DNA of 64,000 nucleotides from the NCBI GenBank assembly GCA_902805735.1, contig CADCTW010000021.1:1-64000 (forward strand), read 5' to 3'. This document shows positions 32,260 through 53,903 of the stretch, in pieces. A program made the position numbers and the translations under genes. Position 1 is the first letter of the stretch; every line of letters starts with the position of its first letter. A model generated the notes under the pieces. That model made no database searches and was not told the DNA's origin. It saw only the letters and a list, made by a program, of their open reading frames with translations. The DNA comes from an uncultured Gemmatimonadota bacterium. Its GTDB lineage: Bacteria; Gemmatimonadota; Gemmatimonadetes; Longimicrobiales; Longimicrobiaceae.

Positions 32260-35200
32260 TCAAATTGCGACTCGCTGGAGAATCCGGCTGGATACCCACG
32301 GCAGGTTCCGGCGCACCAGAACCTCTTCGAACGACCACACCTCCACGCCCGCACCGCCGGACAGCAGCGCCCGCAGATCGTCATCGGATGAGTACGAAGA
32401 GGTGAGTGGATCCAGCACACCCACCACCAGCGGCTTTCCGGACGATGGCGTGACCAGGATGGGCGCGACTCTCGGGCTGCCCGCAGCGTTGATCACCACG
32501 CCACGCTCCACCTCGGCTTCACCGTCTAGTTGCCGGCTCAGGTCGTTGTACAGCCGATCGGCAGTGGACGCCATCCAGACTGGGTCAGGTGCCGGAATTT
32601 GCCCTGTCTTCAGGTACCGGAGCAGAAACGACCCCACTCGGCGGTCCAAGAGATCGTGATCGAACTTGTTCTTGTAGCTTCGCAGACAGCGGTAGCAGGA
32701 ACGGTCACAGTCCTCGGGGCACGTTTCCAGTAGCGTTAGAGCCTTCTCGAAGATTTCGCTGAAACGCACGCCCGCCTGGCGCGCGAACCCTGCTCCGCCC
32801 GCGAGCGTGTCGTACAGGAAGATCTCGGCTTCCACGCCCTGCTGGCCCTCCGGCGTGAGCGCCGGCCGGAACTCCGCCTGCAACTCCGCCGGCTCGAGCC
32901 CCAGGACGTCGCAAGCCGCCCGCGAGAACGCTTCACTCACCGTCCGCAACGCTACCTCTGTCGCGTAAAGGTCGGCGCGGAGCGTCAGCGGCGGCGCCAC
33001 CCGCACCGACACCAGGAGCACGTCGGTGATGAAGTCGGTGCCCAAAACGATTCCGCGCACCACGCTCCCGCCTGGACAGGCTTGCTCGCGGCTGTCAGGA
33101 TAGGGTTTGTTGTGCGTCCGCAGGACCACGGAATCCTCCACGACCGCCGGTTCGATGCGCCCGCACCGGAGGCAGTAGTTGTAGCCCTTCAGTTTCGGCC
33201 CTCGGTTGGTGACCAGCAGGTGGTCCTTCATGTGATACACCCTCACCCGCTCCTCTAAGACCTTGGCAGCACTCTCAGGTGTCGGCCCGGCGAGCAGCTT
33301 CGCGCGTGTCGCATAGCTCCTCACCGGAGCCTCTTCGGGTGAGGTCGCTTCATCCACGTCCACCGGGTGCGCGAAACCCGGTGGGCGAAGCCACCGGCGG
33401 GAAGGTCCGAAAGACCCAGCCGTACCGCACGCCTCGCAATCAAGCACCTCTCCGACGCGGCCCTCGCTCAACGTGCGGGTGAGAGCATGCTGGCACTCGC
33501 TGCACTCGTAGTACACGCGCCGGTCCTGCCAGGCTTGCCGTCGTTCGGTGGCCACCGGCGAGTAGATCGCACCGGAGACGAACTTCTTCCCTGCCACCCA
33601 GATCTCCTTTCCAGGGGCGTACTGCGAGAGCGCAACCGGCAGCGCCTGGGACGGGGCGAACTGGAATGCGGGTCTGAACGGCTTCGAGTCCGTGGGATCG
33701 AAGACGTGCAATGCGGCCACGTCCGTTGGAAACGCGTAGCGCGGAAGCACGCCCTTGTACAGCAGGCGGTTCAGGAGCTTCTCATGCGAGGGATCGTCTG
33801 CAGGGAGGCTGTCTTCCGCCTCCGGTGGCACTTCAGGGGCACTTTCGTCCGCGCCTTCCTCGTCCGCAAGGGCGCCGTATTCGGGCGGCTCGTCCGAAGC
33901 ATCCGCTGCGCCCACATCTGGGTCGCCAGCCTGGAATCCGGCCGGGCGAACCAGGGCAAGTGCCGCGTCCAGCGCGACGAGTGTCTCAGGGATCAGGACG
34001 GCGACCAGCTCAGCACGCCCCTCACCCAACTGCTCTGGCAACCAGTCGGTGATCGCGGCACCCAGCCGCGCCTCGTTCTCTCGCAGCCAGAATTCGAAAT
34101 CACTGCGGTTGATCTTTGTGTCGACGCGCTTGAACTCCGACACTGTCCCGAGCACCGCGAAGAGATTCGCGGTGGCCGCCGTGGGCTCGACATCGGGGAG
34201 TCGCTCCGCGTGGTAGGTCTGGAGCAGGTACGCGGTGACGTGGCGACGGGCGATCTCGTAGTTGTCGAGGGTGAGGAATGGGTCGTCGACAGGTCCGCGG
34301 ATCATGAGATGAGGGTTCTGGAAGTAGTGCTCGTCGTGGCTGTCCGCGCTGCCGAACGCCAGTACAGTAGCGATCGCGTTTCCGCGTCGCCCGGCGCGGC
34401 CGGCGCGCTGCTGGTAGTTCGAACGTGCAGGGGGCATGTTGCGGAGCGCGACGCCGGACAGCGCTCCGATGTCGATCCCTACCTCCATCGTGGTCGTGCA
34501 GGAGAGGACGTCCACGGCGCTCTCCGCCCCCGGAGCGCCCACCTCGCCGAGCTGAACGTCCTGGAAGCGGAGTTCGTTCTCCTCCGCCTTCGAGAAGACG
34601 TTTTGCTCGTTGGCGGAGTTGAGCTGGGCGGTGTGTTCCGCCGCCACGATGGAGAACGGTGCCGAAGGCTCGTGCGCCAGGACTCCGGCCGCAGCTTGGC
34701 GGTAGTACCCCTTCCGCGCCGTGAATACGGCGTCCGTGTCAGGGTCGATCCGATCGCAAGAGAGCGAGCCGCAGTTGAGACAGCGACTTTCCAATGGGAA
34801 CGGGCGCTGCACGGCGCGGCACCTGGAACAGTACGCCCATTCACCGCCCAGGCGCAGCCGCAATTCCGAACCGCGCATCCAGTACTTGGACGACGATCTT
34901 GCGCTGCACAGCTTCTCGAGCAGGACGGGAATCCAGGTCCGCTTGAACGCGCGCTTCGCCTCCGGCGTTCTGAGCACATTGCGCTCGAACGCCTGGATCG
35001 TCGTTCCGCGGGAACGGACCACGTCCTCCGCCCAGTCAACCGGCATCCGCTCCAGCCAGACATGGTTCGGACCCCACCGGCGGATCCAGGCGCGCGCCAC
35101 GGCGAGCCGCTCCTCCGGCGAGGACGTGACGCCAGGGAGGTTGGGCAGGGCGGCAAACGACTCCGTGTGCATCGGCGACTCCTCGACCGACGCTAACGCC

Positions 35201-37851
35201 AACGCCTCCATCCCGGTGTAGCGGTCCCACACCACCTTGTTGAGAGACCGGAGCAGCGACTGTGCGGCCTTGTGGGACTGCAACTTTGTCAGGAGAGCGA
35301 GGAACTTCAACGGCTGGTTGAACACGCCTTTGGCGAGCGCGTCGTCTACCGGGCCAAGGTCCACCGATTCTCCCTTCTTGAGCTCCGGCCGGATCCTCCC
35401 GCCGAGCGCACCGACCCCGACGAGCAACGCGCTGTAAAGCGACTCAAGGCTAGAGTGCGCCGCTGCCAACTCTTCCTCCGAGGCGAGCGTCTCGTGGATT
35501 TGGCGGACGCCGGCGACCACGAGCGGACGGAGCACGTCCCGCATCGAGTCCGACTGCAGGGAAGGCGCGAGCCGTGCTGCCGTCTGCCTGGAGTCCGAGA
35601 ACACGAGCACTTTGCGGCCGCCGAGCGGGGCAAACTTGGACGGGCTTCGGCTCGGAGGCTGTATCCGCAGTTGCTGCGAGATGAGGGCGAGGAACGGCTG
35701 GTCGCCCTTCGTGAGGTGATCCTGCACAGACGAGCGGCCGAACGTCTCCGAGCCGCCACACACGCCGCACGGGCGGAACTCGCCCCGGCGGCTTGGATCC
35801 GCGGCGGTTTCCTCGTCATCTTCTGCCGCGGCATCCGGTCGTAGGTAGACGATCCGCATCCGCTCGCCGGCCGAAACAGGATCAACCCTACCGCCGACGA
35901 GGTCCAATTCCACCGCCCGCGCCGCGAAAGTCGGCTCCTCGAGCAGCACATCCACTGCAGTGAGTTCCTCCGTGTCTACCTCCTCCGCCCTGATCGCCCG
36001 CCCCGCCTCGCTCCAGAGATAGTCAGGGTTCTCGGGCGCGTCGGTGTACGCGCGCGCATAGGCCGCTCCGCAGCTTCGGCAGGTGTACAACTCGAACACC
36101 CGGCCACCGCAGCCACATAGATCCCGGGGCTGCGCGTAGACCCGTCCCGTTGGGCCGCCGCGACCTGCCTCGGCGAGTTCGGTGCACTCCGGGTCCAGGC
36201 AGGCCCAGAGCCCCGGGAGCCCCCTGTAGAAGGAGTGCACCCGGCAGGGCACGAGCCCAGGATGCTCCGGGTCCGGACGAGCGACGCTTCCCAGCGCAAG
36301 GAGCGAAGTAAGCGCACGGGCGGCCAGTTCCGACTCGACCCCGGGGAACACGTCGGCGGCAAGCTCCACGACCGGGCAGGCGCGTTGCATGGTGGTGTTC
36401 ACCGCCAGCCCGAGGGGCGCGAACCCGTTCAATGCCGCGAACAGCGACGCCTCCACGTCGTCACCGCTCGGGGTGGCGCCCACGTGCGCCAGCAGCGGCT
36501 CGGCCAGCGCCATACGCTGGGCCCCGCTCTCGGCCGCGTAGAACGCGTCCATGTCCACGTCGGCCAACGCTTGGGCGTCAGCCACGGACCCGGGAGCCGC
36601 AGGATCGCGGAGCGCGAGCACGCCCTGGACGCCGACGAACGCGCCGTGCGCTTTACCCGTGAGATCCGCGGCGAATTCCACCGCATGTGCCGCGCTGTCG
36701 AAGCTCGCGCTTGTGCAGATGACCTGCAGGCGTTCGGGGGAGATCCCCAAACGCGCTCTCAACCGCCGGATGAGGAGCGACACCTCCGCGCCGGCGGCCC
36801 CGCGGTACAGGTGGGCTTCGTCGACGATGAGCAGCAACCGCTCGTCCGGATTCTGCTCCAGCCACGTCCTGGTCTGGTCGAAGATGGGCCGCTCGAGCGG
36901 CCTCATCAGCATGTACTCCAGCATCGAGTAGTTGGTGACGAGAACGTCCGGGGCCGCGGCGTGGACCTCGTGGCGCGTGAGTAGCTCGGGGTCGTCCGGC
37001 AGGGTCACGCACCTGCGGTATGTGCCGTCTTTGGACTGCCAGCGGCTGCCCCGCTCTCCGTACCACACACGCAGGTCCGGCTTGGCCGGCCACTTGCCGC
37101 GCCTGCGCAGTTCTTGAATGAGCGACTGGGCCTTCGCCTGCACTTCGGGACGCGAACTGTCGTCGGCCTCCTCGAGCAGGCGGACGTAGTACTCGCCGAC
37201 CGCGCGGAGCCGCTCCTGGTCTTTCTTCGCGGTGCGCACCCCCGGGTAGAGAGTGCGGCTGGTATACCGCGCGAACCGCGCGGGGCGCCCCGCCCAAGCC
37301 TTGAACTTCCCGACCAGGCGCGGGTCCCCCATCAGGAGCCTCAGGCGGCCCAGTTGGTCGTTGACCAGGGCGTTCATCGGGTAGAGCAGCACGACACGTA
37401 CGGCCGCCGCCGCGAAGCTCTGCGGACGGTTCGCGGCTTCCGCGGCGAGCTTCCCCAGCGCGGGGAGGAGGAAGCTCTCGGTCTTGCCAGATCCCGTCCC
37501 GGTCGTGAGGATGATGCTCTTGTCCCGTGCAAGCACCTCCTCGAGAGCCTGTGCCTGGTGCCGGTAAGGTGGGTCGAACAACTGCGCTCGGAGGTCCCCA
37601 GACGACTCTGATAGGTCGCCGAACAGCGACACCGCGGCTGCATCCAGACCCGGGATCTCGGCATAGCGCCGGTCGGTCTGGTACCGGGGCGTGCTCTCGA
37701 TGTACGGCTCTTGCGAGATCACACCCGGCCGCCCAAACAGCCGCCGGCGTTGCGTGACGAGGTTGGGATGGCCGATGTGGTACGTAGCCTCGATGTACTC
37801 GCTGAGCGAGTCGTGGAGCCGCTGGATCGCTTCGCTGATCGACGTGGGCAT
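32260..37851 (-). CDS. druE: DruE-like giant DEAH helicase with DUF1998 zinc module
   Basis: An 1863-residue superfamily 2 helicase. Walker A is GTGSGKTES (about 118), the DEAH box is LLIVDEAHLYRG (about 350), TNYSMLEYMLMRP lies between, and the second RecA lobe has KVLVFSDSRQTAARL and the arginine-finger motif QQRAGRAGRRG. Several CxxC zinc pairs occur (CGCGG, CRSCG, CSRC, CLNCG). The C-terminal part carries the DUF1998 signature LYDTLAGGAGFA...CPEDCDRSCYRCL. This size and layout match DruE of Druantia; DISARM splits helicase (DrmA) and DUF1998 (DrmB) into two genes. ATG 37851 follows the upstream stop by seven bases. Confidence 0.85.
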   Translation of the reverse strand: MPTSISEAIQRLHDSLSEYIEATYHIGHPNLVTQRRRLFGRPGVISQEPYIESTPRYQTDRRYAEIPGLDAAAVSLFGDLSESSGDLRAQLFDPPYRHQAQALEEVLARDKSIILTTGTGSGKTESFLLPALGKLAAEAANRPQSFAAAAVRVVLLYPMNALVNDQLGRLRLLMGDPRLVGKFKAWAGRPARFARYTSRTLYPGVRTAKKDQERLRAVGEYYVRLLEEADDSSRPEVQAKAQSLIQELRRRGKWPAKPDLRVWYGERGSRWQSKDGTYRRCVTLPDDPELLTRHEVHAAAPDVLVTNYSMLEYMLMRPLERPIFDQTRTWLEQNPDERLLLIVDEAHLYRGAAGAEVSLLIRRLRARLGISPERLQVICTSASFDSAAHAVEFAADLTGKAHGAFVGVQGVLALRDPAAPGSVADAQALADVDMDAFYAAESGAQRMALAEPLLAHVGATPSGDDVEASLFAALNGFAPLGLAVNTTMQRACPVVELAADVFPGVESELAARALTSLLALGSVARPDPEHPGLVPCRVHSFYRGLPGLWACLDPECTELAEAGRGGPTGRVYAQPRDLCGCGGRVFELYTCRSCGAAYARAYTDAPENPDYLWSEAGRAIRAEEVDTEELTAVDVLLEEPTFAARAVELDLVGGRVDPVSAGERMRIVYLRPDAAAEDDEETAADPSRRGEFRPCGVCGGSETFGRSSVQDHLTKGDQPFLALISQQLRIQPPSRSPSKFAPLGGRKVLVFSDSRQTAARLAPSLQSDSMRDVLRPLVVAGVRQIHETLASEEELAAAHSSLESLYSALLVGVGALGGRIRPELKKGESVDLGPVDDALAKGVFNQPLKFLALLTKLQSHKAAQSLLRSLNKVVWDRYTGMEALALASVEESPMHTESFAALPNLPGVTSSPEERLAVARAWIRRWGPNHVWLERMPVDWAEDVVRSRGTTIQAFERNVLRTPEAKRAFKRTWIPVLLEKLCSARSSSKYWMRGSELRLRLGGEWAYCSRCRAVQRPFPLESRCLNCGSLSCDRIDPDTDAVFTARKGYYRQAAAGVLAHEPSAPFSIVAAEHTAQLNSANEQNVFSKAEENELRFQDVQLGEVGAPGAESAVDVLSCTTTMEVGIDIGALSGVALRNMPPARSNYQQRAGRAGRRGNAIATVLAFGSADSHDEHYFQNPHLMIRGPVDDPFLTLDNYEIARRHVTAYLLQTYHAERLPDVEPTAATANLFAVLGTVSEFKRVDTKINRSDFEFWLRENEARLGAAITDWLPEQLGEGRAELVAVLIPETLVALDAALALVRPAGFQAGDPDVGAADASDEPPEYGALADEEGADESAPEVPPEAEDSLPADDPSHEKLLNRLLYKGVLPRYAFPTDVAALHVFDPTDSKPFRPAFQFAPSQALPVALSQYAPGKEIWVAGKKFVSGAIYSPVATERRQAWQDRRVYYECSECQHALTRTLSEGRVGEVLDCEACGTAGSFGPSRRWLRPPGFAHPVDVDEATSPEEAPVRSYATRAKLLAGPTPESAAKVLEERVRVYHMKDHLLVTNRGPKLKGYNYCLRCGRIEPAVVEDSVVLRTHNKPYPDSREQACPGGSVVRGIVLGTDFITDVLLVSVRVAPPLTLRADLYATEVALRTVSEAFSRAACDVLGLEPAELQAEFRPALTPEGQQGVEAEIFLYDTLAGGAGFARQAGVRFSEIFEKALTLLETCPEDCDRSCYRCLRSYKNKFDHDLLDRRVGSFLLRYLKTGQIPAPDPVWMASTADRLYNDLSRQLDGEAEVERGVVINAAGSPRVAPILVTPSSGKPLVVGVLDPLTSSYSSDDDLRALLSGGAGVEVWSFEEVLVRRNLPWVSSRILQRVAI

Positions 37852-37858
37852 CTTTTGG

Positions 37859-38932
37859 TTACACGGGTTTGAGCCAGAGGGCACGTTCGAGGAAGCGGGC
37901 CTCTTCTTCGAGTTCCGCCTGCGGGACGGCGATCGACATGAGCTCCCCGCGACCGTTCACGGGGAGTCTGCGGCCAACTGTGAGGAGCCTGCGCTCCGCC
38001 CAACTCGGTACAGGGCTGAACAACCCTAACACGCCTTCGTCCGTCTCCGCTCCGCCGCCGTCACGCAGGACATACCGCTGAGGGGTCCCCGCACAAGCGT
38101 CCAGCGCCATCTGCAGGTGCCAGGCTGCGTCCGCACCCGTTTGCGGGTTCTCAGGGTCGTCCAGATCGAAGAGGTGGACGATCTGCCCGTCTCCGAGCTC
38201 CACGTAGCACCAGAGTGCCCGGCCGAAGCGGCGCTCGCGCCGCCCGACGAAACGACCCGTCCGTTCACCCGCCGGAACTCTGCGCCCGGTGTAGAACGTG
38301 GGCGAAGCTGCGGGGTCGATTACAGTCAGCGAGGACGTGTCACCTCCTGCCCCCGAGCGGTCGAGTTGCCTCGTGTACCCGGCTTGGTGTTCGCGCGGTG
38401 CAACGGTCGAGGGAGCACCGAACCACCGATCGGGGTCAAGCCGCGTATACGCAAGCTCTCCGAGCACGTCGTCCCACACGATCCCGGCGAGCGGTTCCAG
38501 CCAGCGCACCACGCCCCTGTGCCGCAGCGCTTCTTCAAACTCCGCCGGCAGCGCTGTGGGATGATCGGCGACTACGCCGTGCAGGTACGCGGCGCCGCTA
38601 GAGCGAACGACGTATGAAGGGACCGCCAGGTAAAGCGTACGAACGACTCCGTCCGACGCGCTGCCGATCGGTACCTCCACAAGGTCGCCGTGCAGCACGA
38701 GCTCGTCGAGCGCTTCGCGGATGAGTTCGCGCGGATCGTCCCCAAGCCAGTCCCCGGCAGACGACTCAACCCGGTCGACGATTCGCCGTGCAGGACCGGG
38801 ACATAGGAATCCCGCCGCGCGTCGCACCAGGGCGGCAACCGCCTCGACCGCTGTAAGCGATTCTACAACACCGTCGAGCCCGAGACTTTTTAGAGTTGCG
38901 GCCTCCACAACCCCGGCAGGTACGGCTCTCAC
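37859..38932 (-). CDS. Unknown protein in the Druantia-like operon (357 aa)
   Basis: A 357-residue protein with no catalytic motif I recognise. The N-terminal half is helical and may include a winged-helix-like stretch (about 55-110, REALDELVLHGDLVEVPIG); the C-terminal half is beta-rich (RERRFGRALWCYVELGDGQI). The start is placed at GTG 38932, which overlaps the stop of the preceding gene (TAGTG), implying translational coupling; a TTG three codons earlier is the alternative. It could be a divergent counterpart of one of the accessory Druantia proteins (DruB, DruC or DruD), but I cannot show this. Confidence 0.75.
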   Translation of the reverse strand: MRAVPAGVVEAATLKSLGLDGVVESLTAVEAVAALVRRAAGFLCPGPARRIVDRVESSAGDWLGDDPRELIREALDELVLHGDLVEVPIGSASDGVVRTLYLAVPSYVVRSSGAAYLHGVVADHPTALPAEFEEALRHRGVVRWLEPLAGIVWDDVLGELAYTRLDPDRWFGAPSTVAPREHQAGYTRQLDRSGAGGDTSSLTVIDPAASPTFYTGRRVPAGERTGRFVGRRERRFGRALWCYVELGDGQIVHLFDLDDPENPQTGADAAWHLQMALDACAGTPQRYVLRDGGGAETDEGVLGLFSPVPSWAERRLLTVGRRLPVNGRGELMSIAVPQAELEEEARFLERALWLKPV

Positions 38933-41829
38933 TATTCCCAACCTGCGTAGAGAGGGATTGCCGTGATGTCGCCTCCTGGGCGAGCCGTATGGCTCGCGAC
39001 TACCAGAAACCGCGCTGCACGCATGAGGATCGCGTTTTCAAGAAGACGCGTCCAGGACGCTTCCGCCAAGACCCCCACCCGCTCCGGGGTGCTCATCAGG
39101 CTGAGGGCGAGCACCGCGTCCGGATGGCTAAGAGACGTGAACTCACGGGCGCGAGAGAAGACAGCGAGGAGGCGGTCGGCGCGCGCGTCGCCGCTGAGTT
39201 CGGGCAATGCGGGCAGCAGTTCCTCCAACCCCTCTCTGATCGCGCCATGGCCAGGGTGCATCGTCACGTCGCGGACGAGTTCGTGGACACTCTTGCGGCC
39301 TGCCATGAAAGCATGCTCCACAGGAACCCACCGAGCTCCGCACAGAAACCCGACGATGTGTTCGTGGATCGCGCGCAAGACGTTGCATTGGCGCAACCGG
39401 GCCATGCGGCTCCCCTGCGGGGTCGCCTCCGCCCACAAGGCGGCGAGTTGAACAAGTTGTGACGCTCCGTCTGGTGCTCGGCGGTAGTGGCGCAGGCGCG
39501 GCTTGACCTGCAGCCCGTGAAGCCGATGCACCCCGGCGGGCGCCAGAACCGCGGTGGCGCGCTCGCTGCCGTGCGACGCTTCGAGCAGTCCGCCGCCGAC
39601 TGGCACTCCCACAGCTTCACCCGCTGCCGCTGCGACCCCGCGCGGAACGTCCGGTTCGTCAAACGTACGAAACTGGAGAATTGCCTCGCCCTCGGCGCCC
39701 GTGTCGTCCAGGAGCGTGACAAAACGCTCACGCCGTCTGGTCCGGACCGCCCACCGTAGCGGTGCGAGATGGCGAACGAACAGAAACCGCTGGGACGCCA
39801 CTCCCCCGAACGAGAGAGCCACCTCGACGGCCCACGAAGTGTCGAGTGCATCCTGCACCGGCTGGTCGTCCAGGAAGCTTTCTACAAAGGACCTTCGCCA
39901 TGCGGCCATGTCGAAGGGGAGACGGCCCGCAGGCAGCGACTTCCGGTACAGCCGCCGCTCCCTCTTGTAGTTCCAGAGGCTCACGTCGGTTTCGACCCGC
40001 ACTCCGGGCGGACCGGCGACGTCCAGGCGGAAGCGACCCGCCAGCAGGTCCTCCATTGTCGCCGCTGCGGGCGCGGCAGCGACTTGCACGGCGTGCTGGT
40101 CGCCCAGCGTCCCGGTCCAGGGACGCGGCGCACGGACGGTAATCTCAAGTCCTGCGGACACGACACGGCCGTCTGACGCGGCTGCACGAACGGCTATCGA
40201 ATGGGGTCCGGGCGAGAGTTGCGGGAGCTCCACATAGACCACCTCACCCTCCGTGGTGCCAATCAGCGTCGATGCGCCCGTTTCGCCTGACAGCGTCAGC
40301 TCCACCGATTCGACTGCGGTCTCGCGCCGCACACCGACAACGGGGGTGTCGGTGGTCAACCACTCCACGTGCCCCTCGCCGTCCCAGAACAGCGGCGGAG
40401 CGCCGACCGGCGAAAAGCGAATCGAGCTCGCGCGGGAGAAACCGAGTTCCCCGAGCAGTCCCTCCACGTTAGCCGGCATAAACGCCGGCACTGACACGTG
40501 CGCGGCGCTCACGCCAGCGCATCGTACCTCGACGCGCCGAAGAACCGCATCATATTCGATCGGGTTTACGCTTAGGAGGACGTACTCAGCCCCAGGACGA
40601 AAGACTCCGCTCCGGACGTGGTACGCACGGCCGTCCGCTGCAACTTTGAACAGCCACGAAGGTCCGCGCGGAAGGAGTGCCGTCGTCGTCAGAGCCGCAC
40701 GCGCGACAGCGGGGGCGTTGTCGAACTCCAACAAGACCTCGTCGGGACGCGGCCAGCGTTCGAGAGCCACCCGCTGGATCCCATGAAGCAACCGACCAGG
40801 TGCGAGAGGGCGGCGACCCCCGCCCGCCACCCGGCACCGCGAACGTGTGAGCAGATCGTTCCACACGGGGCTCGCCAGCAGGTGGTGCACCTCCGGAATT
40901 TCCAGATCCAACGCCCATACGCCCTCTCCAACCCGGCGCAGCACGAGCCGAGGGTCAATGCCCAGCGCCGATCTTTGGTACGTCGGCCGCGGTCGCCCTC
41001 CCCCGGCCGCTATCGTCGGCAGAGCCGTCGCGGCGTCTCGTTCGGGGTGCCTCCCGACCGCGAGCGCCCGCGTCGGCTGCGCCACGCCCCGGAGGCGCAC
41101 TTGGGCGGCGCGTTGACGCGCTTCCGCCAACCATGTCCGCGCGAGGCGCTCCCGTTCCAAGTCGCTGGCGATGCGGTCGAGAGTCCCGGCATGGACTAGG
41201 TGACTCGTCTGGCTCGCGTCTTTGAGGAGGAGCGCCGTCGCGATCTGTCCGACGAGAGCCGCGTCCTCCGCGAACGTCGCAAACCGCGAAGAACTCGAGT
41301 GTGACCTGGAACGGATCAGCTCGCCGAGCGCGAGCGGGTCGGTGAGATGCTCGATCTGCAACACCCAGCGGAGATCGTGCAGCGCGCGGGCGAGTTGCTG
41401 CTGGAGATCCCGCGGGAGGATCGCATGAGTAATTGGCCAGCAGATGATTGAGAAGTGACGCGCCCAGTCACCCTGGGGTTGTGCCCCGCCAAACCGCCTG
41501 GCAAACTTGCGGAACTGCTCCCGCAGCCACGGACGGTCCACGTTAGGGATCCACCCAGGGGTCCTGTCCTCGTACGTCTGCCAGTACTCCTCGCCCGCGA
41601 AGTCATACCCGATCTCTGCGGCGTACACGACCCATGGCAGCCACAAGCCGCCGGAAGGACGGGCGGCCAGGATCGCTCTGCGGACATCCTCGTCCAAGCT
41701 CTCGCACTCTGCGGAGGACAAACCGTGCTCGAGCACGTACAACGCGTGATTGCCCAAAGCGCGCCGTGACGCGCTGAGGCTCTTGAAGTGCGTGTCGAGA
41801 CGGCTTTGCCAGTCGCGGAGGGTTGCCAT
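38932..41829 (-). CDS. Unknown 965-residue protein, first gene of the Druantia-like operon
   Basis: A 965-residue protein without recognised enzyme motifs. The N-terminal 170 residues are helical and Trp/Tyr-rich (WLPWVVYAAEIGYDFAGEEY, FSIICWPITHAILPRDLQ), which looks like a conserved domain. The middle (about 280-640) is beta-rich with several Ig-like or sandwich-like stretches (SVELTLSGETGASTLIG), and the C-terminus is helical. ATG 41829 (MATLRDWQS) is used; the longer frame to 41949 lies in the divergent promoter region. Its overlap with the 357-residue gene and their short distance to the helicase show one operon. Likely a structural or target-sensing part (inference). Confidence 0.75.
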   Translation of the reverse strand: MATLRDWQSRLDTHFKSLSASRRALGNHALYVLEHGLSSAECESLDEDVRRAILAARPSGGLWLPWVVYAAEIGYDFAGEEYWQTYEDRTPGWIPNVDRPWLREQFRKFARRFGGAQPQGDWARHFSIICWPITHAILPRDLQQQLARALHDLRWVLQIEHLTDPLALGELIRSRSHSSSSRFATFAEDAALVGQIATALLLKDASQTSHLVHAGTLDRIASDLERERLARTWLAEARQRAAQVRLRGVAQPTRALAVGRHPERDAATALPTIAAGGGRPRPTYQRSALGIDPRLVLRRVGEGVWALDLEIPEVHHLLASPVWNDLLTRSRCRVAGGGRRPLAPGRLLHGIQRVALERWPRPDEVLLEFDNAPAVARAALTTTALLPRGPSWLFKVAADGRAYHVRSGVFRPGAEYVLLSVNPIEYDAVLRRVEVRCAGVSAAHVSVPAFMPANVEGLLGELGFSRASSIRFSPVGAPPLFWDGEGHVEWLTTDTPVVGVRRETAVESVELTLSGETGASTLIGTTEGEVVYVELPQLSPGPHSIAVRAAASDGRVVSAGLEITVRAPRPWTGTLGDQHAVQVAAAPAAATMEDLLAGRFRLDVAGPPGVRVETDVSLWNYKRERRLYRKSLPAGRLPFDMAAWRRSFVESFLDDQPVQDALDTSWAVEVALSFGGVASQRFLFVRHLAPLRWAVRTRRRERFVTLLDDTGAEGEAILQFRTFDEPDVPRGVAAAAGEAVGVPVGGGLLEASHGSERATAVLAPAGVHRLHGLQVKPRLRHYRRAPDGASQLVQLAALWAEATPQGSRMARLRQCNVLRAIHEHIVGFLCGARWVPVEHAFMAGRKSVHELVRDVTMHPGHGAIREGLEELLPALPELSGDARADRLLAVFSRAREFTSLSHPDAVLALSLMSTPERVGVLAEASWTRLLENAILMRAARFLVVASHTARPGGDITAIPLYAGWE

Positions 41830-42056
41830 GGAGGCCGCAGAGGGGGGTACGGGGTAAAAACACCGACGGTAGCGAGAGTAACTGGCGCGCCATTCCGTCG
41901 CAAGCCCGTCCCGGTCGGCCGGGCTCCTCACGTCGCGCCTCCGCAGCACGCAGAACCGCCAAGAAGAGAGGGGCTGCTACACCCGATGCAGTCCTATCCC
42001 GCCCAGACCAATGCGGACCCCGTGTCTAGCGGGACCCCTCCTCCCCCGAATACCTT
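41830..42056. promoter_or_regulatory. Divergent promoter region of the Druantia-like cluster
   Basis: A 227-bp gap between two start codons facing away from each other, the only place where both arms of the cluster can be transcribed from. It is locally less GC-rich at 41845-41885 (ggggtaaaaacaccgacgg). No clear operator palindrome was found. Confidence 0.55.
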
Positions 42057-43562
42057 ATGCCCAAATCGCTTCCCCGCCCCTTCGAGGAAGGACATGGCGC
42101 GCCGCAGCGGCCGCTGGTAGACACGCGCAGGTTCCTCCTTGCGACGCGGGAAACCGGGTATCGGAGCACCACCGCGGCGCTCGCCGAACTGGTTGACAAC
42201 TCGCTTCAGGCGGGCGCGCGTCGTATTCGGGTGTTCGTGGACACCCACGACTGTGAAGAGGTACATCGGATCGCGGTGCTCGACAACGGTGGAGGAATGT
42301 CGTGCGCCGAACTCGACGAGGCGCTCCAGTTCGGTGGCAGCCTCCGCTTTGGTGACCGGAGCGGCTTAGGCCGTTTCGGGATGGGCCTGCCGAACAGCTC
42401 CGTGAGCCAGGCACGCAGGCTCGACGTCTACAGCTGGACTCGACCGGGCGATGTGCGGCACGCATCGCTCGACATCGACGAGGTACTCGCCGGCGGGGTC
42501 CCCGGCCGCGCGGGCGGCGTAACTCCGCTACCGGAGTGGCTGTGCGAGGACGTCGGCCCGCACGGCACTCTCGTGGTATGGTCAAGGTGCGACCGGCTCG
42601 CCGACCAAGGAGTCGGACACCTCGCCGCCTCCATGCGTACCGAACTGGGGAGAGTTTACCGATACTCTCTTTGGGAGGGTGTCGTGATCACGGTCAACGG
42701 GGCCACTGTGTCACCGATGGACCCGCTCTTCCTAAAAACCACCTCGGGCGGGCCGCGTGCCCGCGCGTTCGGGCGACCGCTCCGGTACGAGGTGCGCGTT
42801 CCCACCACGGGGGAACCATCTGTCGTCCGAGTTCGCTTCAGCGAACTTCCAGTGAGCGAATGGAAAGACCGTCCGGCTGGCGAACGGCGCGCCAGCGGAA
42901 TCGTTCGTGGCGCGGGCGTGTCGGTCGTCCGCGCCGGGCGGGAGATCGACTACGGCTGGCACCTGATGGGGGACAAGCGCCGCGAGAACTACGACGACTG
43001 GTGGCGCTGCGAGATCGCGTTCGAACCGGTGCTCGACGAGCTCTTCGGCGTGACGCACAGCAAGCAAGGGATTCGCCCCAACCCGGACCTCGTGGCGCTC
43101 CTCGCCGGAGATTTGGAATCCGCGGCGCGGACGCTGAACCGTCGAGTCCGCGACGCTTTCGCCGCCACGTCTACCGACCTCGTGGGTGCCCGCGCAGGAC
43201 GCGCGGAGCGAAAGGCCACCCGTCGGGAACGGACGCTTCCCCAGGGCGAGTTCGTTCCAGGGCACCGTCGGGACGGTGGCGTCCGCAGTTGGCGCATTGT
43301 AGCGCGCGAGTTACCGACCGGCGACTTCTTCCGGGTGGAGCATGCGGACGGCGAGCGAGTTTTGGTGCTCAACCGCCTTCACCCGTTTTACCAGTCGGTC
43401 TACCACCCGCTCGCCGTGGACGACCAGAGACGGTTCGCGCTCGAATGCCTCCTACTCTCCGCCGCGCGCGCGTTCGACACCGGATCGTCTGTATCTGAGA
43501 GCGAGGTGCTCAGCGCGCTCCGCGCGGACTGGAGCGACGCGCTCGCCGCTTACCTGACCTGA
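42057..43562 (+). CDS. MORC/MutL-like GHKL ATPase
   Basis: A 501-residue protein with an N-terminal Bergerat-fold ATPase. The N box is LAELVDNSLQAGA (42-54, Glu and Asn for ATP and Mg), the G1 box DNGGGM (76-81) and the G2 box GLGRFGMGLPNSS (about 103-115). A transducer-like domain (about 200-340) follows, with HSKQGIRPN as the likely lysine loop. The C-terminal 150 residues are charged and helical. Prokaryotic MORC-like ATPases next to SF2 helicases are known from restriction-type islands (Iyer, Abhiman and Aravind). ATP-driven clamping of DNA is the expected activity. The DruA-like gene begins 15 bp after its stop. Confidence 0.88.
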   Translation: MPKSLPRPFEEGHGAPQRPLVDTRRFLLATRETGYRSTTAALAELVDNSLQAGARRIRVFVDTHDCEEVHRIAVLDNGGGMSCAELDEALQFGGSLRFGDRSGLGRFGMGLPNSSVSQARRLDVYSWTRPGDVRHASLDIDEVLAGGVPGRAGGVTPLPEWLCEDVGPHGTLVVWSRCDRLADQGVGHLAASMRTELGRVYRYSLWEGVVITVNGATVSPMDPLFLKTTSGGPRARAFGRPLRYEVRVPTTGEPSVVRVRFSELPVSEWKDRPAGERRASGIVRGAGVSVVRAGREIDYGWHLMGDKRRENYDDWWRCEIAFEPVLDELFGVTHSKQGIRPNPDLVALLAGDLESAARTLNRRVRDAFAATSTDLVGARAGRAERKATRRERTLPQGEFVPGHRRDGGVRSWRIVARELPTGDFFRVEHADGERVLVLNRLHPFYQSVYHPLAVDDQRRFALECLLLSAARAFDTGSSVSESEVLSALRADWSDALAAYLT

Positions 43563-43577
43563 AGAAACGATCTCCTG

Positions 43578-45578
43578 ATGTGCGAGTGGAACCCGTTGCG
43601 ACCCGGTGTCACGGACGACGCCGAACTCGACGCCCTGTTCTTGGAATGGGGACGTGCGCTTGAACGCGCGCAGAGCACTGCTGAACTGCGCGCGGAGCGC
43701 GCCGTCATGGACACGCGTGTCGCTTCGGTCGTCTCCCCGCGGGGGCTCGAAATGCGTGTTCTTATCTCTCTTCTATACGATCTCAGGGCAATGGGGTGGC
43801 GTTTTCGCGTGTTAGACGGCGCGGTCGCCACATGCGCGCCGGATATCGACGGGTTGTCAGCGGCGGACCAGCGAGCGTCCGTACGAGAGGGTCACCTTCT
43901 GGAACGTGACGCCCAGCTCGCGCAGCCGGCGACTCGTGCCTTCATCAGCGCGATGGAACGACGGCGCCCGACTGCGAGCGGGTGGCACTCGGTGTTCAGC
44001 CTCATGCGAGACGGGCGAGAGCTCGCCACGGTGTTGGACCTCGCGCGGAGTTCACCCGAGGGCCCCGTACGGGAAACGGCTCTCGCCAATGCGATCAAAC
44101 CGTACATCCAATTGGTTCGCCGGGGAGATCGGTGCAGGTTCACCGGCCTCGAGCTCGCGAGCGTGTGGCGCTATTTCCGGCACACGTGGACGACGGTCTA
44201 CCAGACGACGCCGGGACGGAACCTCGCGTTTCTCGTGCGTGACTCGGCGGCGCCGAATCACCCGGTTGTAGGCATCGGAGCACTCGGAAGCTCGATCGTC
44301 CAACTCCGCGTGCGCGACTCCTGGATCGGCTGGACGGCCGAGGAGTTCGTCGCTCGCGTGAAGGCTCGCCCGACGCTCGCCTGGGCGCGCTGGCTGGACA
44401 GAGAGTCCCGCGAACTGATCACCGACGTCTACTACGGCGATCTTGTAGCGGAGGGGGTTGTTACCGATGAGGAGATCTCCCGCCCCACCACGGAGGCGGT
44501 GGACAGGCTTCGCACGTTCGCCCGCGAAGCTCGTCAACACCATAGGCTTTTTCCCCAGAAGGAGGACCACAGCCGTCACGGAGGTGAGACGCTTGAGGAG
44601 TGCGAGACCCGCGCCCGCACGCACCTTTTTCGGTTCAAGCGCGCCAGCGCCCTCGCCGACCTGCTCTCCGTCCGCCGCGACCTCGCCGACGCGGGGTTTA
44701 CGGCTCCCAGCGTTGCTCGTCTCCGACGCGCGCTCTCATCGCCTGCTGGCGAACGCGCCCTCGTTTCGGTCCTACGCAGAGTGAAAGCGAAGCGTGTCGG
44801 GGTCAACATGATGGACGTGACGGTGTGCGGGGCCGTGGCGCCCTACAACGCGCTCCTCGGCGGCAAGCTCGTGTCGCTCTTGATGGCCAGTTCGGACGTG
44901 TCGCGCGCTTACTCGGCGTGCTATGCCGACGCGACGAGCGTTATCGCGTCCGGCATGGCAGCCCGGCCTGTCAAACGCAACGCCGCCCTGGTTCTCCTCG
45001 GAACCACCGGACTGTACTCGTCATCTCCCAGCCAGTACAACCGGCTGCGCGTTCCGGCAGAGGAGGTCGGCGGTCGTCGCGGCGCGGAACTCCGGTACGT
45101 GCCGCTGGGGCGGACCAGCGGGTACGGCTCGTACCACTTCTCGAAGGGCTCGATGGAGTTGATGGAGACTTTCCTGGCGCAGCGACAGCGTGGCAGGCAG
45201 GTCAACAGCATCTTCGGAGAAGGAGTCAACCCGAAGCTGCGGAAGGTCAAGGCGGCACTGGACGCGGTCGGGCTACCTGGTGAGCTGCTCACTCAACACG
45301 GGCAGTCCCGTCTCGTGTACGGAATCCCGCTCGCCACAAATTTTAGAGAGGTGCTCTTCGGAGTTGAACGCAGGCCGCAGTACATCGTACCCCAGCGGCG
45401 ATCCACGGCGCGCGCGATCGCGCGTTTTTGGATACGGCGTTGGCTCAGCAAGAGAATCGAACAGCCGGGGGTGCTCGAGGGGGTTGGCAGTCACACGCTC
45501 GTCTACCCCGTGGTACACGGTGCGCGCGTCCCCGCCCTCGCCGCCTCAACTGACGATTTCGCGCTTGCTCTCGGCTAA
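43578..45578 (+). CDS. druA: DruA-like protein (DUF4338)
   Basis: A 666-residue protein. From about residue 205 it shows the DUF4338 pattern: GRNLAFLVRD, VVGIGALGSSIVQLRVRDSW and IGWT, and later VCGAVAPYNALLGGKLVSLL, ASSDVSRAY, SVIASGMAARP and the GYGSYHFSKGS stretch. DUF4338 is the domain of DruA, the marker of type I Druantia. The first 200 residues are an extra helical part, making it longer than the usual 400-or-so residue DruA. Start ATG 43578 follows the ATPase gene closely. Molecular activity of DruA is not established; a role in phage defence follows from family and context. Confidence 0.75.
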   Translation: MCEWNPLRPGVTDDAELDALFLEWGRALERAQSTAELRAERAVMDTRVASVVSPRGLEMRVLISLLYDLRAMGWRFRVLDGAVATCAPDIDGLSAADQRASVREGHLLERDAQLAQPATRAFISAMERRRPTASGWHSVFSLMRDGRELATVLDLARSSPEGPVRETALANAIKPYIQLVRRGDRCRFTGLELASVWRYFRHTWTTVYQTTPGRNLAFLVRDSAAPNHPVVGIGALGSSIVQLRVRDSWIGWTAEEFVARVKARPTLAWARWLDRESRELITDVYYGDLVAEGVVTDEEISRPTTEAVDRLRTFAREARQHHRLFPQKEDHSRHGGETLEECETRARTHLFRFKRASALADLLSVRRDLADAGFTAPSVARLRRALSSPAGERALVSVLRRVKAKRVGVNMMDVTVCGAVAPYNALLGGKLVSLLMASSDVSRAYSACYADATSVIASGMAARPVKRNAALVLLGTTGLYSSSPSQYNRLRVPAEEVGGRRGAELRYVPLGRTSGYGSYHFSKGSMELMETFLAQRQRGRQVNSIFGEGVNPKLRKVKAALDAVGLPGELLTQHGQSRLVYGIPLATNFREVLFGVERRPQYIVPQRRSTARAIARFWIRRWLSKRIEQPGVLEGVGSHTLVYPVVHGARVPALAASTDDFALALG

Positions 45579-45967: not shown

Positions 45968-47938
45968 TCAGCCGCCCGGACGCGGGCACACATCTCCTGC
46001 ACCTGGTGCTCCCGGACGAGGCGGGGCGGCAAGGTCGCAGCTGGTCAGGATCACGGCATCATTCTTTCCGTCCGACGCAATCACCCGTATTCGAAAGCGC
46101 GGAGCAGCCCGCACATCGGCGCGTGATACCGTAAAAGCCCGGTACTGCGTCTCGTCCACCGTGCTCCAGCCATTGGCCGGTTCGCGCATCACCTGCAGGT
46201 AATAGGTGATGCCCTCCACGCTCGGATCCGGGTCGACAGCGCTCCAGCGGAATTCGTAGCTTTCGGGGAACACGCGTACTGCGGGTGCGCCCACACGCTG
46301 CGGGGGCAACGATGTTACACGGCGCGACGCCACCACACTTCCGCCCCGCAGCACCTCGATCAAGGCTAAGCCGGGAAGGTCGTACAAGTACGCGTTGACC
46401 GTTCCACCGCGTCTCTGCGGCTGGCCCGGCGGTGCCTCGGGGTCATCAATCTCGTCGGGCTGGATCACCGCGTCCGCCACGGCCAGCACCGCCCCGCCGC
46501 CCGAAAGGCGGATCTGCACGCGGTAGCTTGGTGGGGCGGCGGCAAACATAGCGGAGTCCGTAGCCGGGGTGCGTCCGCGGAAAGGAACGGAGAACACGTT
46601 CTCGATCTGCCCAGCGGGGAGCGTCAGATTGTTGAATCGCGCAATCACGTTCAGCAGCGGTCCGTCGGCGCTCCCAGGCGTCCAGTAACCCTTCCTGTAC
46701 TCGGCCTCCTCGGCGTACACGCGCTCGAGGAGGAGCGAGTCTGTATAGGCGCTCACCCACACCGAACGGCAGTAGGTCATTACATCGTACGCAGTCGTGC
46801 CGCCGAGCAGCACAGGGGGCGATGCACCGTCCCAATCCAATCCCAGGCCCTGCTCCTTCGAATTGCTGATGGCGCCACCGGGGTAGCGCTTCCGGGCCAC
46901 GGGGTCCGCCACAGCCTGATTGCACCACCCGGGGTGGCGCAGCCCCAACGTGTGCGCGATCTCATGTCCCCCATACCAGTCGCCATACGAAGAGTCTCTG
47001 TCCCAAGCGTAGTTCCCTCGCGGTTCGCCGGTAGGGCCTGACGCGACCACACTGGGGTCAGGCCGCAGGGGGATTCCGTTCGAGCAGCCGCGGATGGAGA
47101 GATCATCGCGCCCGCCGTCGTGTAGCATGCCATAATAGTGGGTGCGCGGGTCCTGCCCCCCCTTCAGATCCAGAGCGCGCAACCGGGCGACCAGCGTATT
47201 CAGCGAGGCGCAGTCGAGGGAGGCGGGCGCGTCAACCGTCACGCGTTCGACCGTGACCTTGGTGACTGGGTAGGCGCGACGCAGCCACGCGGCCAGCGCT
47301 TCAAAGTCGACTGGGCGTGGGGAAATAGTTCCGGTCTCGGTTTTGTAGCGAAAGCCAACCGCCTTCACCTGGAGCAACGCCGCCTGCCGCACAACGACCG
47401 TCCGGGTGGCCGCATCGCACTCGGCGCAGACAACCGCGTCGCCCGTGGGGGTAAACACCGCACCGAGGGAAAGCTCCAGCGCCCCCGGCCGCATGAGTGA
47501 AGCGGGAAGTAGAAAGTTGAGCGCGCCATCCCACTGTCCGCGCTTACTGCCTGCCTGCCCGCTCTTCGCGGGGGAAAGCTTTGCAGGGGCGGCGACGTCC
47601 AGCATGGTGTCAGCCCTGCCGGCGGAGCGCACGCGCAGCCGGCCGCGCAGCAGCATCGCCCCCCGCCGGTTGGTTTGCACGTACACCCGTGCCCAGGCCG
47701 CGCGCGACGCCACCAACGGAACGCTGTGCGCGGGGGTCTGCACTACCTGCACTACTTCGACCGGACCGGTGGGCCGCGCCGTATCGGCGGCGGCGTGGAC
47801 GGCGGTGCCCACAATCATGTTCTGGCCCTCCGCAGGCACTACGGTAAGCGCCAGAGCGGTGGCTAGCGCGAGCGCCGCCGCCCGCCGAGGCGAAACACAG
47901 ACGGTCACCTCAGAGCCGGAAGCTGAGGAGCGTCGCAT
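45968..47938 (-). CDS. Secreted zinc metalloprotease (HExxHxxGxxH)
   Basis: A 656-residue exported protein. An N-terminal hydrophobic segment (about 20-38, AAALALATALALTVVPAEG) is the signal peptide. The zinc site is GGHEIAHTLGLRHPG (about 325-338), the metzincin-type HExxHxxGxxH with an aspartate-free third His; a downstream YDVMTYC supplies the Met-turn. C-terminal domains are beta-rich (about 500-640, Ig/FnIII-like). Its layout recalls M66-type proteases. ATG 47938 overlaps the upstream gene by 29 bases and has aggg before it; GTG 47908 directly after that gene's stop is the alternative. The pair is translationally linked. Confidence 0.8.
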   Translation of the reverse strand: MRRSSASGSEVTVCVSPRRAAALALATALALTVVPAEGQNMIVGTAVHAAADTARPTGPVEVVQVVQTPAHSVPLVASRAAWARVYVQTNRRGAMLLRGRLRVRSAGRADTMLDVAAPAKLSPAKSGQAGSKRGQWDGALNFLLPASLMRPGALELSLGAVFTPTGDAVVCAECDAATRTVVVRQAALLQVKAVGFRYKTETGTISPRPVDFEALAAWLRRAYPVTKVTVERVTVDAPASLDCASLNTLVARLRALDLKGGQDPRTHYYGMLHDGGRDDLSIRGCSNGIPLRPDPSVVASGPTGEPRGNYAWDRDSSYGDWYGGHEIAHTLGLRHPGWCNQAVADPVARKRYPGGAISNSKEQGLGLDWDGASPPVLLGGTTAYDVMTYCRSVWVSAYTDSLLLERVYAEEAEYRKGYWTPGSADGPLLNVIARFNNLTLPAGQIENVFSVPFRGRTPATDSAMFAAAPPSYRVQIRLSGGGAVLAVADAVIQPDEIDDPEAPPGQPQRRGGTVNAYLYDLPGLALIEVLRGGSVVASRRVTSLPPQRVGAPAVRVFPESYEFRWSAVDPDPSVEGITYYLQVMREPANGWSTVDETQYRAFTVSRADVRAAPRFRIRVIASDGKNDAVILTSCDLAAPPRPGAPGAGDVCPRPGG

Positions 47939-49847: not shown

Positions 49848-50172
49848 ACGGACCTCCGAAGGGCGAGCGGTGAGGACAAAGAGCGGGAATATTGTCGCTC
49901 CAAATTTGCTGACCCATGGGACGAAGTCAACGATGTTCTGCTGATCTATCCACGGCTGCAGACGGACACTTCCGCATGTTAGGGGTCGGTACGTTCCGCC
50001 GGCACGGGCGTCTATGCCTACGCGGTGGGTACGCGTGGCCGTAACTCCTTTTACAACGCCGGCTGTGGTTCGTGGCTAGGCTCACGGTCGAGCCGTCCCG
50101 ATCCGCGAACGTCAACTCCGTGCAGATGAATTTCGGCTCTGGCGTGGCGACGGTGGGAAAGAGCTGTCAGGG
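49848..50172. other. Spacer without a recognisable gene
   Basis: About 325 bp between two minus-strand genes. The right part should hold the end of the upstream gene's transcript and the left part the promoter of the exported protein. No motif was identified. Confidence 0.4.
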
Positions 50173-53100: not shown

Positions 53101-53529
53101 CAGCTGCATTTCTTCCCACTGGCTGACGAAGTCCGGGTTGATCTTTCGCGGAGCGTTCAGCGCATCCCGGTGCGCCCGGCGGGCGAGTCCGCCAGGAGCA
53201 TTCTTCCCAGCGATGAATAGCCAGCGATCAAAGACCTCGTCGCCCTCTTCGAACTCAAGTGCGCGCAGGATCGCCCTGACCTCACGCTCATGTCTGTCTT
53301 GAGCGGCTTCGTTGATGTCGGGCTCTACGATGATCTCCAGCACGGTACGTAACCCGCTCTCAATCTCGCGGAGGAGGTGTCCAACCAGATGGGTCGTGGT
53401 CGCTAACTGCTCGGGCGCGGCCATGATCCGGACGGCATCGGCGAAGAAATCGGCGGGCCCCGCACCGATTTGCCCCAGCCTCTGGTGCACACGCTGCTGC
53501 AGCGCATCAAATCGAACGGGTTCCGCCAT
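50173..53529 (-). CDS. Large helical-repeat protein, possible defence component
   Basis: A 1118-residue protein almost entirely of alpha-helical repeats (HEAT/ARM-like). The segment around 190-260 (YFFDHLESPEWLTPLQNEGF, then FPGWPEAEYLARIAKIRP) is a pattern I recall from large proteins of bacterial conflict systems, where it joins NTPase modules. No Walker A, nuclease or protease motif is present here. ATG 53529 (MAEPVRFDALQQ) is chosen; the upstream extension is Arg/Pro-rich spacer. Function unknown; a scaffold or sensor role is inference from context. Confidence 0.7.
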   Translation of the reverse strand: MAEPVRFDALQQRVHQRLGQIGAGPADFFADAVRIMAAPEQLATTTHLVGHLLREIESGLRTVLEIIVEPDINEAAQDRHEREVRAILRALEFEEGDEVFDRWLFIAGKNAPGGLARRAHRDALNAPRKINPDFVSQWEEMQLLLDAVLDRFETRYTDVFARLDELLQHETPTRTDLKILKQVVPNTPTTRRYFFDHLESPEWLTPLQNEGFFDSPPPPAVNTENNTVSFPGWPEAEYLARIAKIRPAEVAAIVATVETENVRVQARLVEVLMSLPATQVADLTPLVLQWQPRMSRYYHGHFVLHFAGFMGTNGYTPEALVLASAVLGLPERDEHGVLPTKEAATTRQRDLDWHLTEAPQTLAPLIRAAPLEYVTLLADALDYHVGRPTELDGKAGRDTRTLGVRDWSTTWLPQLAGTSEARERDLRVLLAAALRDALDIALEHGQAVEALVALLRRREPLVFRRLELNFLAHHAHAAPALVAERLTVPEYYESAEFRDELPPLLKAGFPLLREGDRHKVLDRISTVPDFTWIGAEHRGDAGSRWQRDWLAIIADHLPADWRAQFDALVAEHGPPVQIERFHPEYSVWTGPTSPKTEDELRAMSIPEVAEYLGEWEPEAERRSPSRDGLARILTKIVSGEPANFAAEAGRFIGLAAVYTGAVLEGLRTARSSGRSFPWEPVLALGEWILKQQVPPSDVDEGLDGYSDLLWTRLRLADLLGQGLGGTEALSLNERERVWRIISVLAEDLNPSPEFEARSRNTDASTLAINTVRAEGIDAALRYAFWTAEAHREKGGPQLGFDVVPEVAELLERHLDPDVDPSVAVRAAIGKLLGHLAIFDPGWTTRHMGLLLPATPEAAPLRDALWDAYVQWGMLWPAVLDVLEPAYREAIGRARVHGEAPLNEDAPERNLGEHLMQLYWWGTIPLEKANNLVDLFFTRAVPRARKHALRFIGDRLGRTGSSFDTEPIELLRALWEWRMLRLSEACAAGGEAANEARGEVAEFGSWFASGAFDTDWSLAQLRAALQLTGRIEHEVELVEYLGEISEDRPGDAVACLALLDIVGGDDRWKAELWREDAKEIIRRALRSRDPAVHTAARVLVNRWVALGWVDFRDLLDESE

Positions 53530-53903
53530 CCGGATTCCTGAAGTGTAAGCGCGGCTGTGATCAGGCCAGCCGGGAGTTCGCCGCGCGGTTTTAGGGCACC
53601 CGCGGCTTGCCACCCGACTCAGGTGCGGAGCGGGGCAATGCACAGGCCAGCGTTCACGTGCAGAAAGAAGCCCCGGGTACGGCGAATAGCCTCTACGGTC
53701 CACCGTCGCCGCTGACGGAGATGGACGGCCCAAGAACCCTCACCCACTCCTCCTCTCCTCCTGCAATGTTCGTATGCGGGGAGACCGGCTGGTCGAACGA
53801 GTGCTTTCGCCCGAGCACGCCCGTGGGATCAGCCCGTAAAAATCCCGAGGCGGCCACGAGGCGGCCAATCGGGGGGTTCGGTGGACGTGCTAGTGGCTGC
53901 CGG
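53530..53903. other. Spacer without a recognisable gene
   Basis: About 375 bp between two minus-strand genes. A short direct repeat (gaggcggcca) occurs twice near 53850. Nothing else was seen. Confidence 0.4.

What the first reader, a model, noticed from the sequence alone, without database searches (positions are those of the whole stretch)
32260..45578. Divergent Druantia-like cluster with a MORC-type ATPase and two unknown large proteins
One arm encodes a 965-aa unknown, a 357-aa unknown and an 1863-aa DEAH helicase with a DUF1998 zinc module. The other arm encodes a GHKL (MORC/MutL-like) ATPase and a DUF4338 protein. DUF4338 plus a giant DUF1998 helicase is the core of Druantia (DruA, DruE). 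MORC-like ATPases beside SF2 helicases are known from restriction-type islands. I do not recognise the full five-gene set, and the divergent layout and extended DruA are unusual. It may be a new Druantia subtype or hybrid system. I cannot exclude that the unknowns are distant DruB, DruC or DruD proteins.
Basis: partly seen in the sequence, partly recalled or inferred. Interest (0 to 1): 0.85.

Follow-up and report, generated by a model that had tools for sequence, protein, structure and literature searches.

The report
Druantia variant with MORC-like ATPase
This is a predicted bacterial anti-phage system of the Druantia family whose DNA helicase is paired with a MORC/MutL-like ATPase, an enlarged DruA and an uncatalogued Ig-like protein in place of two of the usual Druantia parts; the same five genes recur together in at least seven bacterial phyla.

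Summary
In detail: five intact genes lie at 32260-45578, GHKL ATPase and DruA on +, X-DruD-DruE on -. Two of the "unknowns" are now named: the giant helicase is DruE1 and the 357-aa protein is DruD1 (PADLOC, full length). The DruA is the long form that PADLOC already holds. The 965-aa protein (X) and the GHKL protein are not detectably DruB or DruC and match no Druantia model in PADLOC.

A survey keyed on X gave a two-way pattern. All resolvable loci carry X-DruD-DruE plus EITHER a short DruA (47 loci, none with GHKL) OR a long DruA with GHKL directly 5' of it (18 loci and the window; at least 7 phyla). The two front ends have been exchanged repeatedly. In one pair DruE is 89% identical, X 49%, and the front end differs. 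GHKL and long DruA also form a pair outside this system.

Best reading: a Druantia type I-like system lacking DruB and DruC, in which X is a sensor/scaffold and GHKL-DruA is an exchangeable ATP-gated DNA clamp that licenses DruE. Gene set and modularity are shown; the mechanism is inferred. I found no open-access paper linking Druantia with MORC or GHKL. A new variant of a known kind.

The parts
32260..37884 (-). druE: YprA-family SF2 (DEAH) helicase with MZB/DUF1998 Zn module, type I Druantia DruE1
   Evidence: PADLOC DruE1 1861 bits, residues 11-1870 on model 3-1773; Pfam DEAD, Helicase_C, MZB; motifs intact
37859..38941 (-). druD: DruD1, function unknown
   Evidence: PADLOC DruD1 278 bits over the full length
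38932..41829 (-). X: 965-aa protein (ORF open to 41949 as 1005 aa) with helical N-terminal domain, tandem Ig/FnIII-like beta-sandwiches and helical C-terminal domain; proposed sensor/scaffold standing in the place of DruB+DruC
   Evidence: no significant Pfam/PADLOC/NCBIfam match; full-length homologues next to DruD-DruE; AF2 model pLDDT 84, pTM 0.47; Foldseek hits are tandem Ig-like proteins
41830..42056 (.). divergent intergenic region between the likely start of X and the start of the GHKL gene
   Evidence: ORF coordinates and the start position supported by homologues
42057..43562 (+). GHKL (MORC/MutL-like) ATPase, HATPase_c_3 followed by an S5-like region with conserved KQ336
   Evidence: Pfam HATPase_c_3 2e-21; profile nearest to MORC2 (2e-13) in PDB; ATP-box residues invariant in 11 homologues
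43578..45578 (+). long-form druA (DUF4338/PF14236) with a mainly helical insertion at about residues 262-408 absent from short DruA
   Evidence: Pfam DruA 3e-33, PADLOC DruA1 long model 545 bits; alignment with short DruA; AF2 model pLDDT 88, pTM 0.87

Best explanation
It is a Druantia type I-like anti-phage system that lacks DruB and DruC. Its core is X-DruD-DruE. DruE is the helicase that acts on phage DNA; X, a chain of Ig-like domains between two helical domains, is the probable trigger sensor/scaffold, an analogue (not a detectable homologue) of DruH in Druantia III. The second arm, GHKL ATPase plus long DruA, is an exchangeable front-end module that replaces the short DruA of sister systems. 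I propose that the GHKL protein dimerises on ATP and closes around or loops DNA as MutL and MORC proteins do, that long DruA couples it to the core (perhaps through its extra helical insertion), and that this licenses DruE to load on and process infection-associated DNA. Shown: gene identities, intact motifs, the fixed GHKL-long DruA pairing, its exclusivity with short DruA, repeated exchange, two co-evolving blocks. Inferred: anti-phage function (by homology and island context), sensor role of X, DNA clamp role of GHKL, docking through the DruA insertion. Identity as a distinct recurring Druantia variant: about 0.9. Stated mechanism: about 0.35.
For: DruE1, DruD1 and DruA1 profiles match at full length. 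A survey keyed on X, hence not selected on DruA or GHKL, gave 47 loci with short DruA and no GHKL, and 18 loci with long DruA and/or GHKL visible; loci cut by contig ends were completed from the genomes and showed GHKL adjacent to long DruA. 30 genomes with the short-DruA system were searched for this GHKL family; 3 hold a match at E 1e-40, all weak (200-243 bits), against 397-805 bits in the MORC-variant genomes apart from two cut by contig ends at about 303. The front-end label changes at least 6 times on the X tree, 4 of them forced by well-supported branches, and 5 times on the DruE tree. L017 (short) vs L045 (GHKL-long): DruE 89%, DruD 61%, X 49% identical. Mantel r: GHKL-DruA 0.94; X-DruD-DruE 0.93-0.96; between blocks 0.71-0.82. 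ATP boxes invariant. X is Ig-like with helical ends; published DruH has Ig-like domains, helical ends and J-like similarity and is a likely sensor, and its authors suggest that subtype-specific partners determine how the DruE core is activated (PMC13192584). Neighbours in the window match Lit and Dsr1 defence models.
Against: No experiment on any member. X shows no profile similarity to DruH, and its Foldseek hits are generic tandem Ig folds with low TM-scores, so the sensor role is an analogy. GHKL-DruA pairs also occur on records without DruE1 or X: a 97-kb and a 41-kb virus contig and a Roseivivax plasmid, so the pair may act on its own or with a distant partner in some hosts. No active nuclease was identified; type I DruE is reported to carry an inactivated Vsr domain (PMC12458937). 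The DruA fold matched nothing significant in PDB.
Confidence: 0.6

Rival explanations
1. It is ordinary Druantia type I: X and GHKL are DruB and DruC diverged beyond recognition.
For: X sits where DruB-DruC sit, between DruA and DruD; DruE and DruD are type I.
Against: Canonical DruB (558 aa) and DruC (625 aa, weakly similar to SMC-like proteins) on P. putida pKF715A match their PADLOC models at 762 and 902 bits, but show no profile similarity to X or GHKL (hhalign probability below 1%). 46 diverse X and 11 GHKL proteins hit no DruB or DruC model. X-type DruE forms its own clade.
Confidence: 0.08
2. Two independent systems lie side by side: a GHKL-DruA system (R-M like or standalone) next to an X-DruD-DruE system.
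For: The pair exists without DruE1/X on some records, beside a different DUF1998-helicase system in alphaproteobacteria, and its position relative to X-DruD-DruE varies.
Against: Long DruA+GHKL and short DruA are mutually exclusive across all 65 loci where either is seen, as expected if they fill the same slot; the few X loci with neither are short contigs or cut. Seven phyla share the set.
Confidence: 0.2
3. It is a restriction-type MORC/paraMORC island as described by Iyer et al. 2008.
For: The GHKL protein is MORC-like and lies next to an SF2 helicase, as about 70% of prokaryotic MORC gene neighbourhoods do (PMC2292703).
Against: The helicase is a YprA-family DruE, not one of the three helicase types described there (Rad25-like, SWI2/SNF2, DThhQXuRhFG type); no methyltransferase or restriction endonuclease is in the conserved set.
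Confidence: 0.07

Closest known systems
Druantia type I (DruABCDE; example P. putida pKF715A, L111)
   Same: DruE1 and DruD1 families, a DUF4338 DruA, X-DruD-DruE in the order of (B-C)-D-E
   Different: DruB and DruC absent; single X protein instead; long DruA instead of short; extra GHKL ATPase; DruE in a separate clade
Four-gene short-DruA system (DruA-X-DruD-DruE; Nitrosococcus watsonii pNWAT01, L005, and 46 other loci)
   Same: Same X-DruD-DruE core; DruE up to 89% identical between the two variants
   Different: Short DruA (mostly about 384-480 aa), no GHKL. No PADLOC model covers its X protein either
Druantia type III (DruH-DruE)
   Same: DruE-type helicase with a large partner that has Ig-like domains between helical ends (DruH per PMC13192584)
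   Different: No sequence similarity of X to DruH; DruD and DruA present; type III DruE carries a C-terminal nuclease domain predicted active, type I an inactivated one (PMC12458937)
Prokaryotic MORC/paraMORC ATPases and MutL; MzaB of the MZA system
   Same: GHKL+S5-type ATPase with intact ATP boxes; nearest PDB hits MORC2/3/4 then MutL; MzaB is the one PADLOC family that all GHKL members match, partially
   Different: Partner set is Druantia, not R-M or MZA proteins; the MzaB match covers only residues 29-223

Membership tests
Druantia type I | DruE1 helicase with DUF1998/MZB module | tested here: met
   1861 bits over full PADLOC DruE1 model
Druantia type I | DruD1 | tested here: met
   278 bits, full length
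Druantia type I | DruA (DUF4338) | tested here: met
   PADLOC DruA1 long model 545 bits, Pfam PF14236
Druantia type I | DruB | tested here: not met
   No hit of any window protein or of X/GHKL homologues to DruB models; no hhalign similarity to a verified DruB
Druantia type I | DruC | tested here: not met
   No hit to DruC1 model PDLC00006 in the window genome or in the X/GHKL families; no similarity to a verified DruC
Druantia type I | anti-phage activity | not testable with these tools
   needs cloning and phage challenge
Druantia type III | DruH partner | tested here: not met
   X vs E. coli YjiT/DruH: hhalign probability 0.9%; no PADLOC hit of X
MORC/paraMORC restriction islands (Iyer 2008) | MORC-like GHKL ATPase | tested here: met
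   which MORC or paraMORC subfamily was not tested
MORC/paraMORC restriction islands (Iyer 2008) | methyltransferase or restriction endonuclease and one of the three described helicase types | tested here: not met
   none among the five proteins; helicase is DruE/YprA type
MZA system | MzaB full-length equivalog plus other Mza proteins | tested here: not met
   MzaB match partial and far below cut-off (83.6 vs 850 bits); no other Mza hit among the scanned genes

The most novel reading that the evidence does not exclude
GHKL-long DruA is a mobile, ATP-gated activation module that plugs into different YprA-helicase effectors (X-DruD-DruE; and a DUF1998 helicase-NERD-SNF2-X system in alphaproteobacteria). 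Druantia would then be an effector core with interchangeable front ends, and this set a new Druantia type in which a MORC-like ATPase takes part in phage DNA recognition, alongside its eukaryotic relatives that silence transposons and viruses.
Probability: 0.45. Interest if true: 0.75.

Novelty: new variant of a known kind. Interest (0 to 1): 0.62.

Why it matters
Druantia type I is poorly understood: DruA, B, C and D have no assigned function. Finding that one Ig-like protein stands where DruB and DruC are expected, and that short DruA is replaced by a MORC-like ATPase plus a longer DruA in front of a nearly unchanged helicase, makes DruA's role testable by module swaps. It also links prokaryotic MORC-like ATPases to a YprA-helicase defence family, which bears on how eukaryotic MORC silencing arose. 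X and this GHKL family have no model in PADLOC 2.0.0, so such loci are probably under-called by defence scans.

Tried and rejected
X as DruB, DruC or DruH: rejected by profile comparison. GHKL as DruB/DruC: rejected. Weak Pfam hits of X (CopC E 0.03, DUF6907 E 0.01, one member each) treated as chance. DruA fold search against PDB gave no significant match; a scatter of GNAT-fold acetyltransferases appears at E 5-10, too weak to use, and no Pfam acetyltransferase hit supports it. Flanking window genes were tested as extra members and are not conserved in related loci. E. coli type I could not be found by nucleotide search; viral contigs gave no DruE by single-protein query. The independent-pairs call (121) used one label for both traits and is not counted as a test of association; the Fisher p-value there ignores relatedness and is not relied on. 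Only the number of independent switches is used.
Full report
WHAT IS THERE. The five genes are real and intact. On the - strand lie X (38932-41949; homologues support a start near 41829, 965 aa), DruD (37859-38941) and DruE (32260-37884), with overlapping ends. On the + strand lie the GHKL ATPase (42057-43562) and DruA (43578-45578), 15 bp apart. PADLOC models identify DruE1 (1861 bits, whole model), DruD1 (278 bits) and DruA1 (545 bits to the 675-position long model). Pfam gives DEAD, Helicase_C, MZB, HATPase_c_3 and DruA. X has no significant match in Pfam, PADLOC or NCBIfam, and 46 diverse homologues give none worth counting. The window's genome is probably a member of Gemmatimonadota: the genomes of its class that hold X are those of the Gemmatimonadetes loci L017, L024 and L061 (inference from contigs of matching length).

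SURVEY KEYED ON X. One scan of 84,980 species genomes with an X alignment gave 74 loci. X-DruD-DruE is constant: 60 of the 70 loci tabulated show all three, the rest being cut or broken. The front end is one of two kinds. In 47 loci a short DruA (mostly 384-480 aa; outliers 297, 547 and 621) is present and no GHKL gene is within the locus. In 18 loci long DruA (about 650-740 aa) and/or GHKL was visible. Where contig ends cut the view the genomes were searched and extended, and GHKL lies directly 5' of long DruA on the same strand. No locus has both DruA kinds. Of 30 genomes with the short system, 3 hold a protein of this GHKL family at E 1e-40, all weak (200-243 bits). The MORC-type set occurs in Gemmatimonadota, Acidobacteriota, Actinomycetota, Pseudomonadota, Thermodesulfobacteriota, Myxococcota and Omnitrophota.

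LAYOUT. Co-directional GHKL-DruA-X-DruD-DruE (L020, L021, L034, L035, L045, L061, L109), divergent as in the window (L073, Candidatus Sulfotelmatobacter), convergent downstream (L050, L054, L060, L063, L064, L065) and co-directional downstream (L033, L056, L083). The divergent layout is therefore not the novelty.

NOT DruB OR DruC. A canonical type I operon was found on P. putida plasmid pKF715A: DruA 409 aa, DruB 558 aa (762 bits), DruC 625 aa (902 bits), DruD, DruE (2332 bits). Profile comparison of the X alignment and of the GHKL alignment with that DruB and DruC gives probabilities below 1%. DruB and DruC were single sequences, which limits sensitivity. The X-type DruE proteins form a clade separate from the canonical DruE, on a fast tree with a long-branch warning.

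MODULARITY. On the X tree the front-end label changes at least 6 times (4 forced by well-supported branches); on the DruE tree 5 times. L017 (short DruA) and L045 (GHKL-long DruA) have DruE 89% identical, DruD 61%, X 49%, whereas L045 and L020 (both MORC type) have 91, 82 and 71%. So the helicase stays while the front end and X change. Distance matrices fall into two blocks, GHKL-DruA (r 0.94) and X-DruD-DruE (r 0.93-0.96), with 0.71-0.82 between blocks. Across 13 complete systems mean identity is DruE 57%, GHKL 39%, DruA 41%, DruD 38%, X 34%: X is the least conserved. Within X the N-terminal helical domain is best conserved and the C-terminal domain least.

STRUCTURE. X is predicted as a helical N-terminal domain (about 38-287), tandem beta-sandwich domains (about 334-805) and a helical C-terminal domain (pLDDT 84; pTM 0.47, domain orientation unsure). 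Foldseek hits are tandem Ig/FnIII/MG-domain proteins, including phage tail-tip and J-type proteins, all with low TM-scores. Long DruA is predicted well (pLDDT 88, pTM 0.87) but matches nothing significant in PDB. GHKL profile: MORC2 2e-13, MORC3/4, then MutL and topoisomerase VI; ATP-box residues are invariant.

MECHANISM (inferred). [quoted passage not shown] the authors suggest that subtype-specific partners determine how the DruE core is activated (PMC13192584). By analogy X is the sensor/scaffold and DruE the effector. MORC and MutL ATPases dimerise on ATP and clamp or loop DNA (established knowledge; PMC2292703 proposes looping for prokaryotic MORCs). The replacement of short DruA by GHKL-long DruA suggests that DruA does the coupling, and that the GHKL adds an ATP-driven DNA clamp or checkpoint. 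Type I DruE is reported with an inactivated Vsr nuclease domain (PMC12458937), so the nuclease, if any, is unidentified.

LIMITS. No experiment. PADLOC 2.0.0 is from 2023. The literature searched is the open-access part of PMC; no paper there holds both Druantia and MORC or GHKL, and subscription papers were not seen. GHKL-DruA pairs on records without DruE1 or X leave open an independent role. The survey used conserved X motifs, so very divergent X systems are missed.

Noticed in passing
L117 (NZ_CP083555.1 70000-101000, Leisingera), L113, L085, L086: A related larger set in alphaproteobacteria: one or two GHKL ATPases, long DruA, a roughly 2050-2094-aa DruE-like DUF1998 helicase, a NERD-helicase, a roughly 333-aa protein weakly similar to DruD, a DpdE/BrxH-like SNF2 helicase and an X homologue (hhalign 99.96% over 735 columns). 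Its parts match several PADLOC models but not as one named system.
   Followed up: partly
L107, L108 (IMG/VR contigs): GHKL-long DruA pairs on virus contigs beside similar roughly 490-aa genes that look like phage genes; the L107 record also carries X and DruE, the L108 record neither. Suggests carriage by related prophages.
   Followed up: partly
L116 (Roseivivax plasmid pTHAF40_c): Two GHKL ATPases plus long DruA with no DruE1 or X anywhere on the 66-kb plasmid.
   Followed up: partly
window 45968-62865: Probable defence island next to the system: Lit-like peptidase (53904-54896), Dsr1-like 1186-aa protein (50173-53733), a protein with a partial match to an Argonaute-associated REase/TIR model (59605-61731), and a 1420-aa protein with a weak PDC-M54A match.
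   Followed up: no
L114 (Natrialbaceae plasmid): Archaeal long DruA divergent from a DruE1-like helicase (1570 bits) with two unknown partners and no GHKL of this family detected nearby: a further long-DruA variant.
   Followed up: no
L050 5015-8152 and 9926-12835 (Mycobacterium sp. E2733): Two diverged X genes in one system, as might be expected for a sensor under diversification.
   Followed up: no
L006 (Sinorhizobium medicae plasmid): X-DruD-DruE remnant broken up, with IS21 and IS3 family transposases between the pieces.
   Followed up: no
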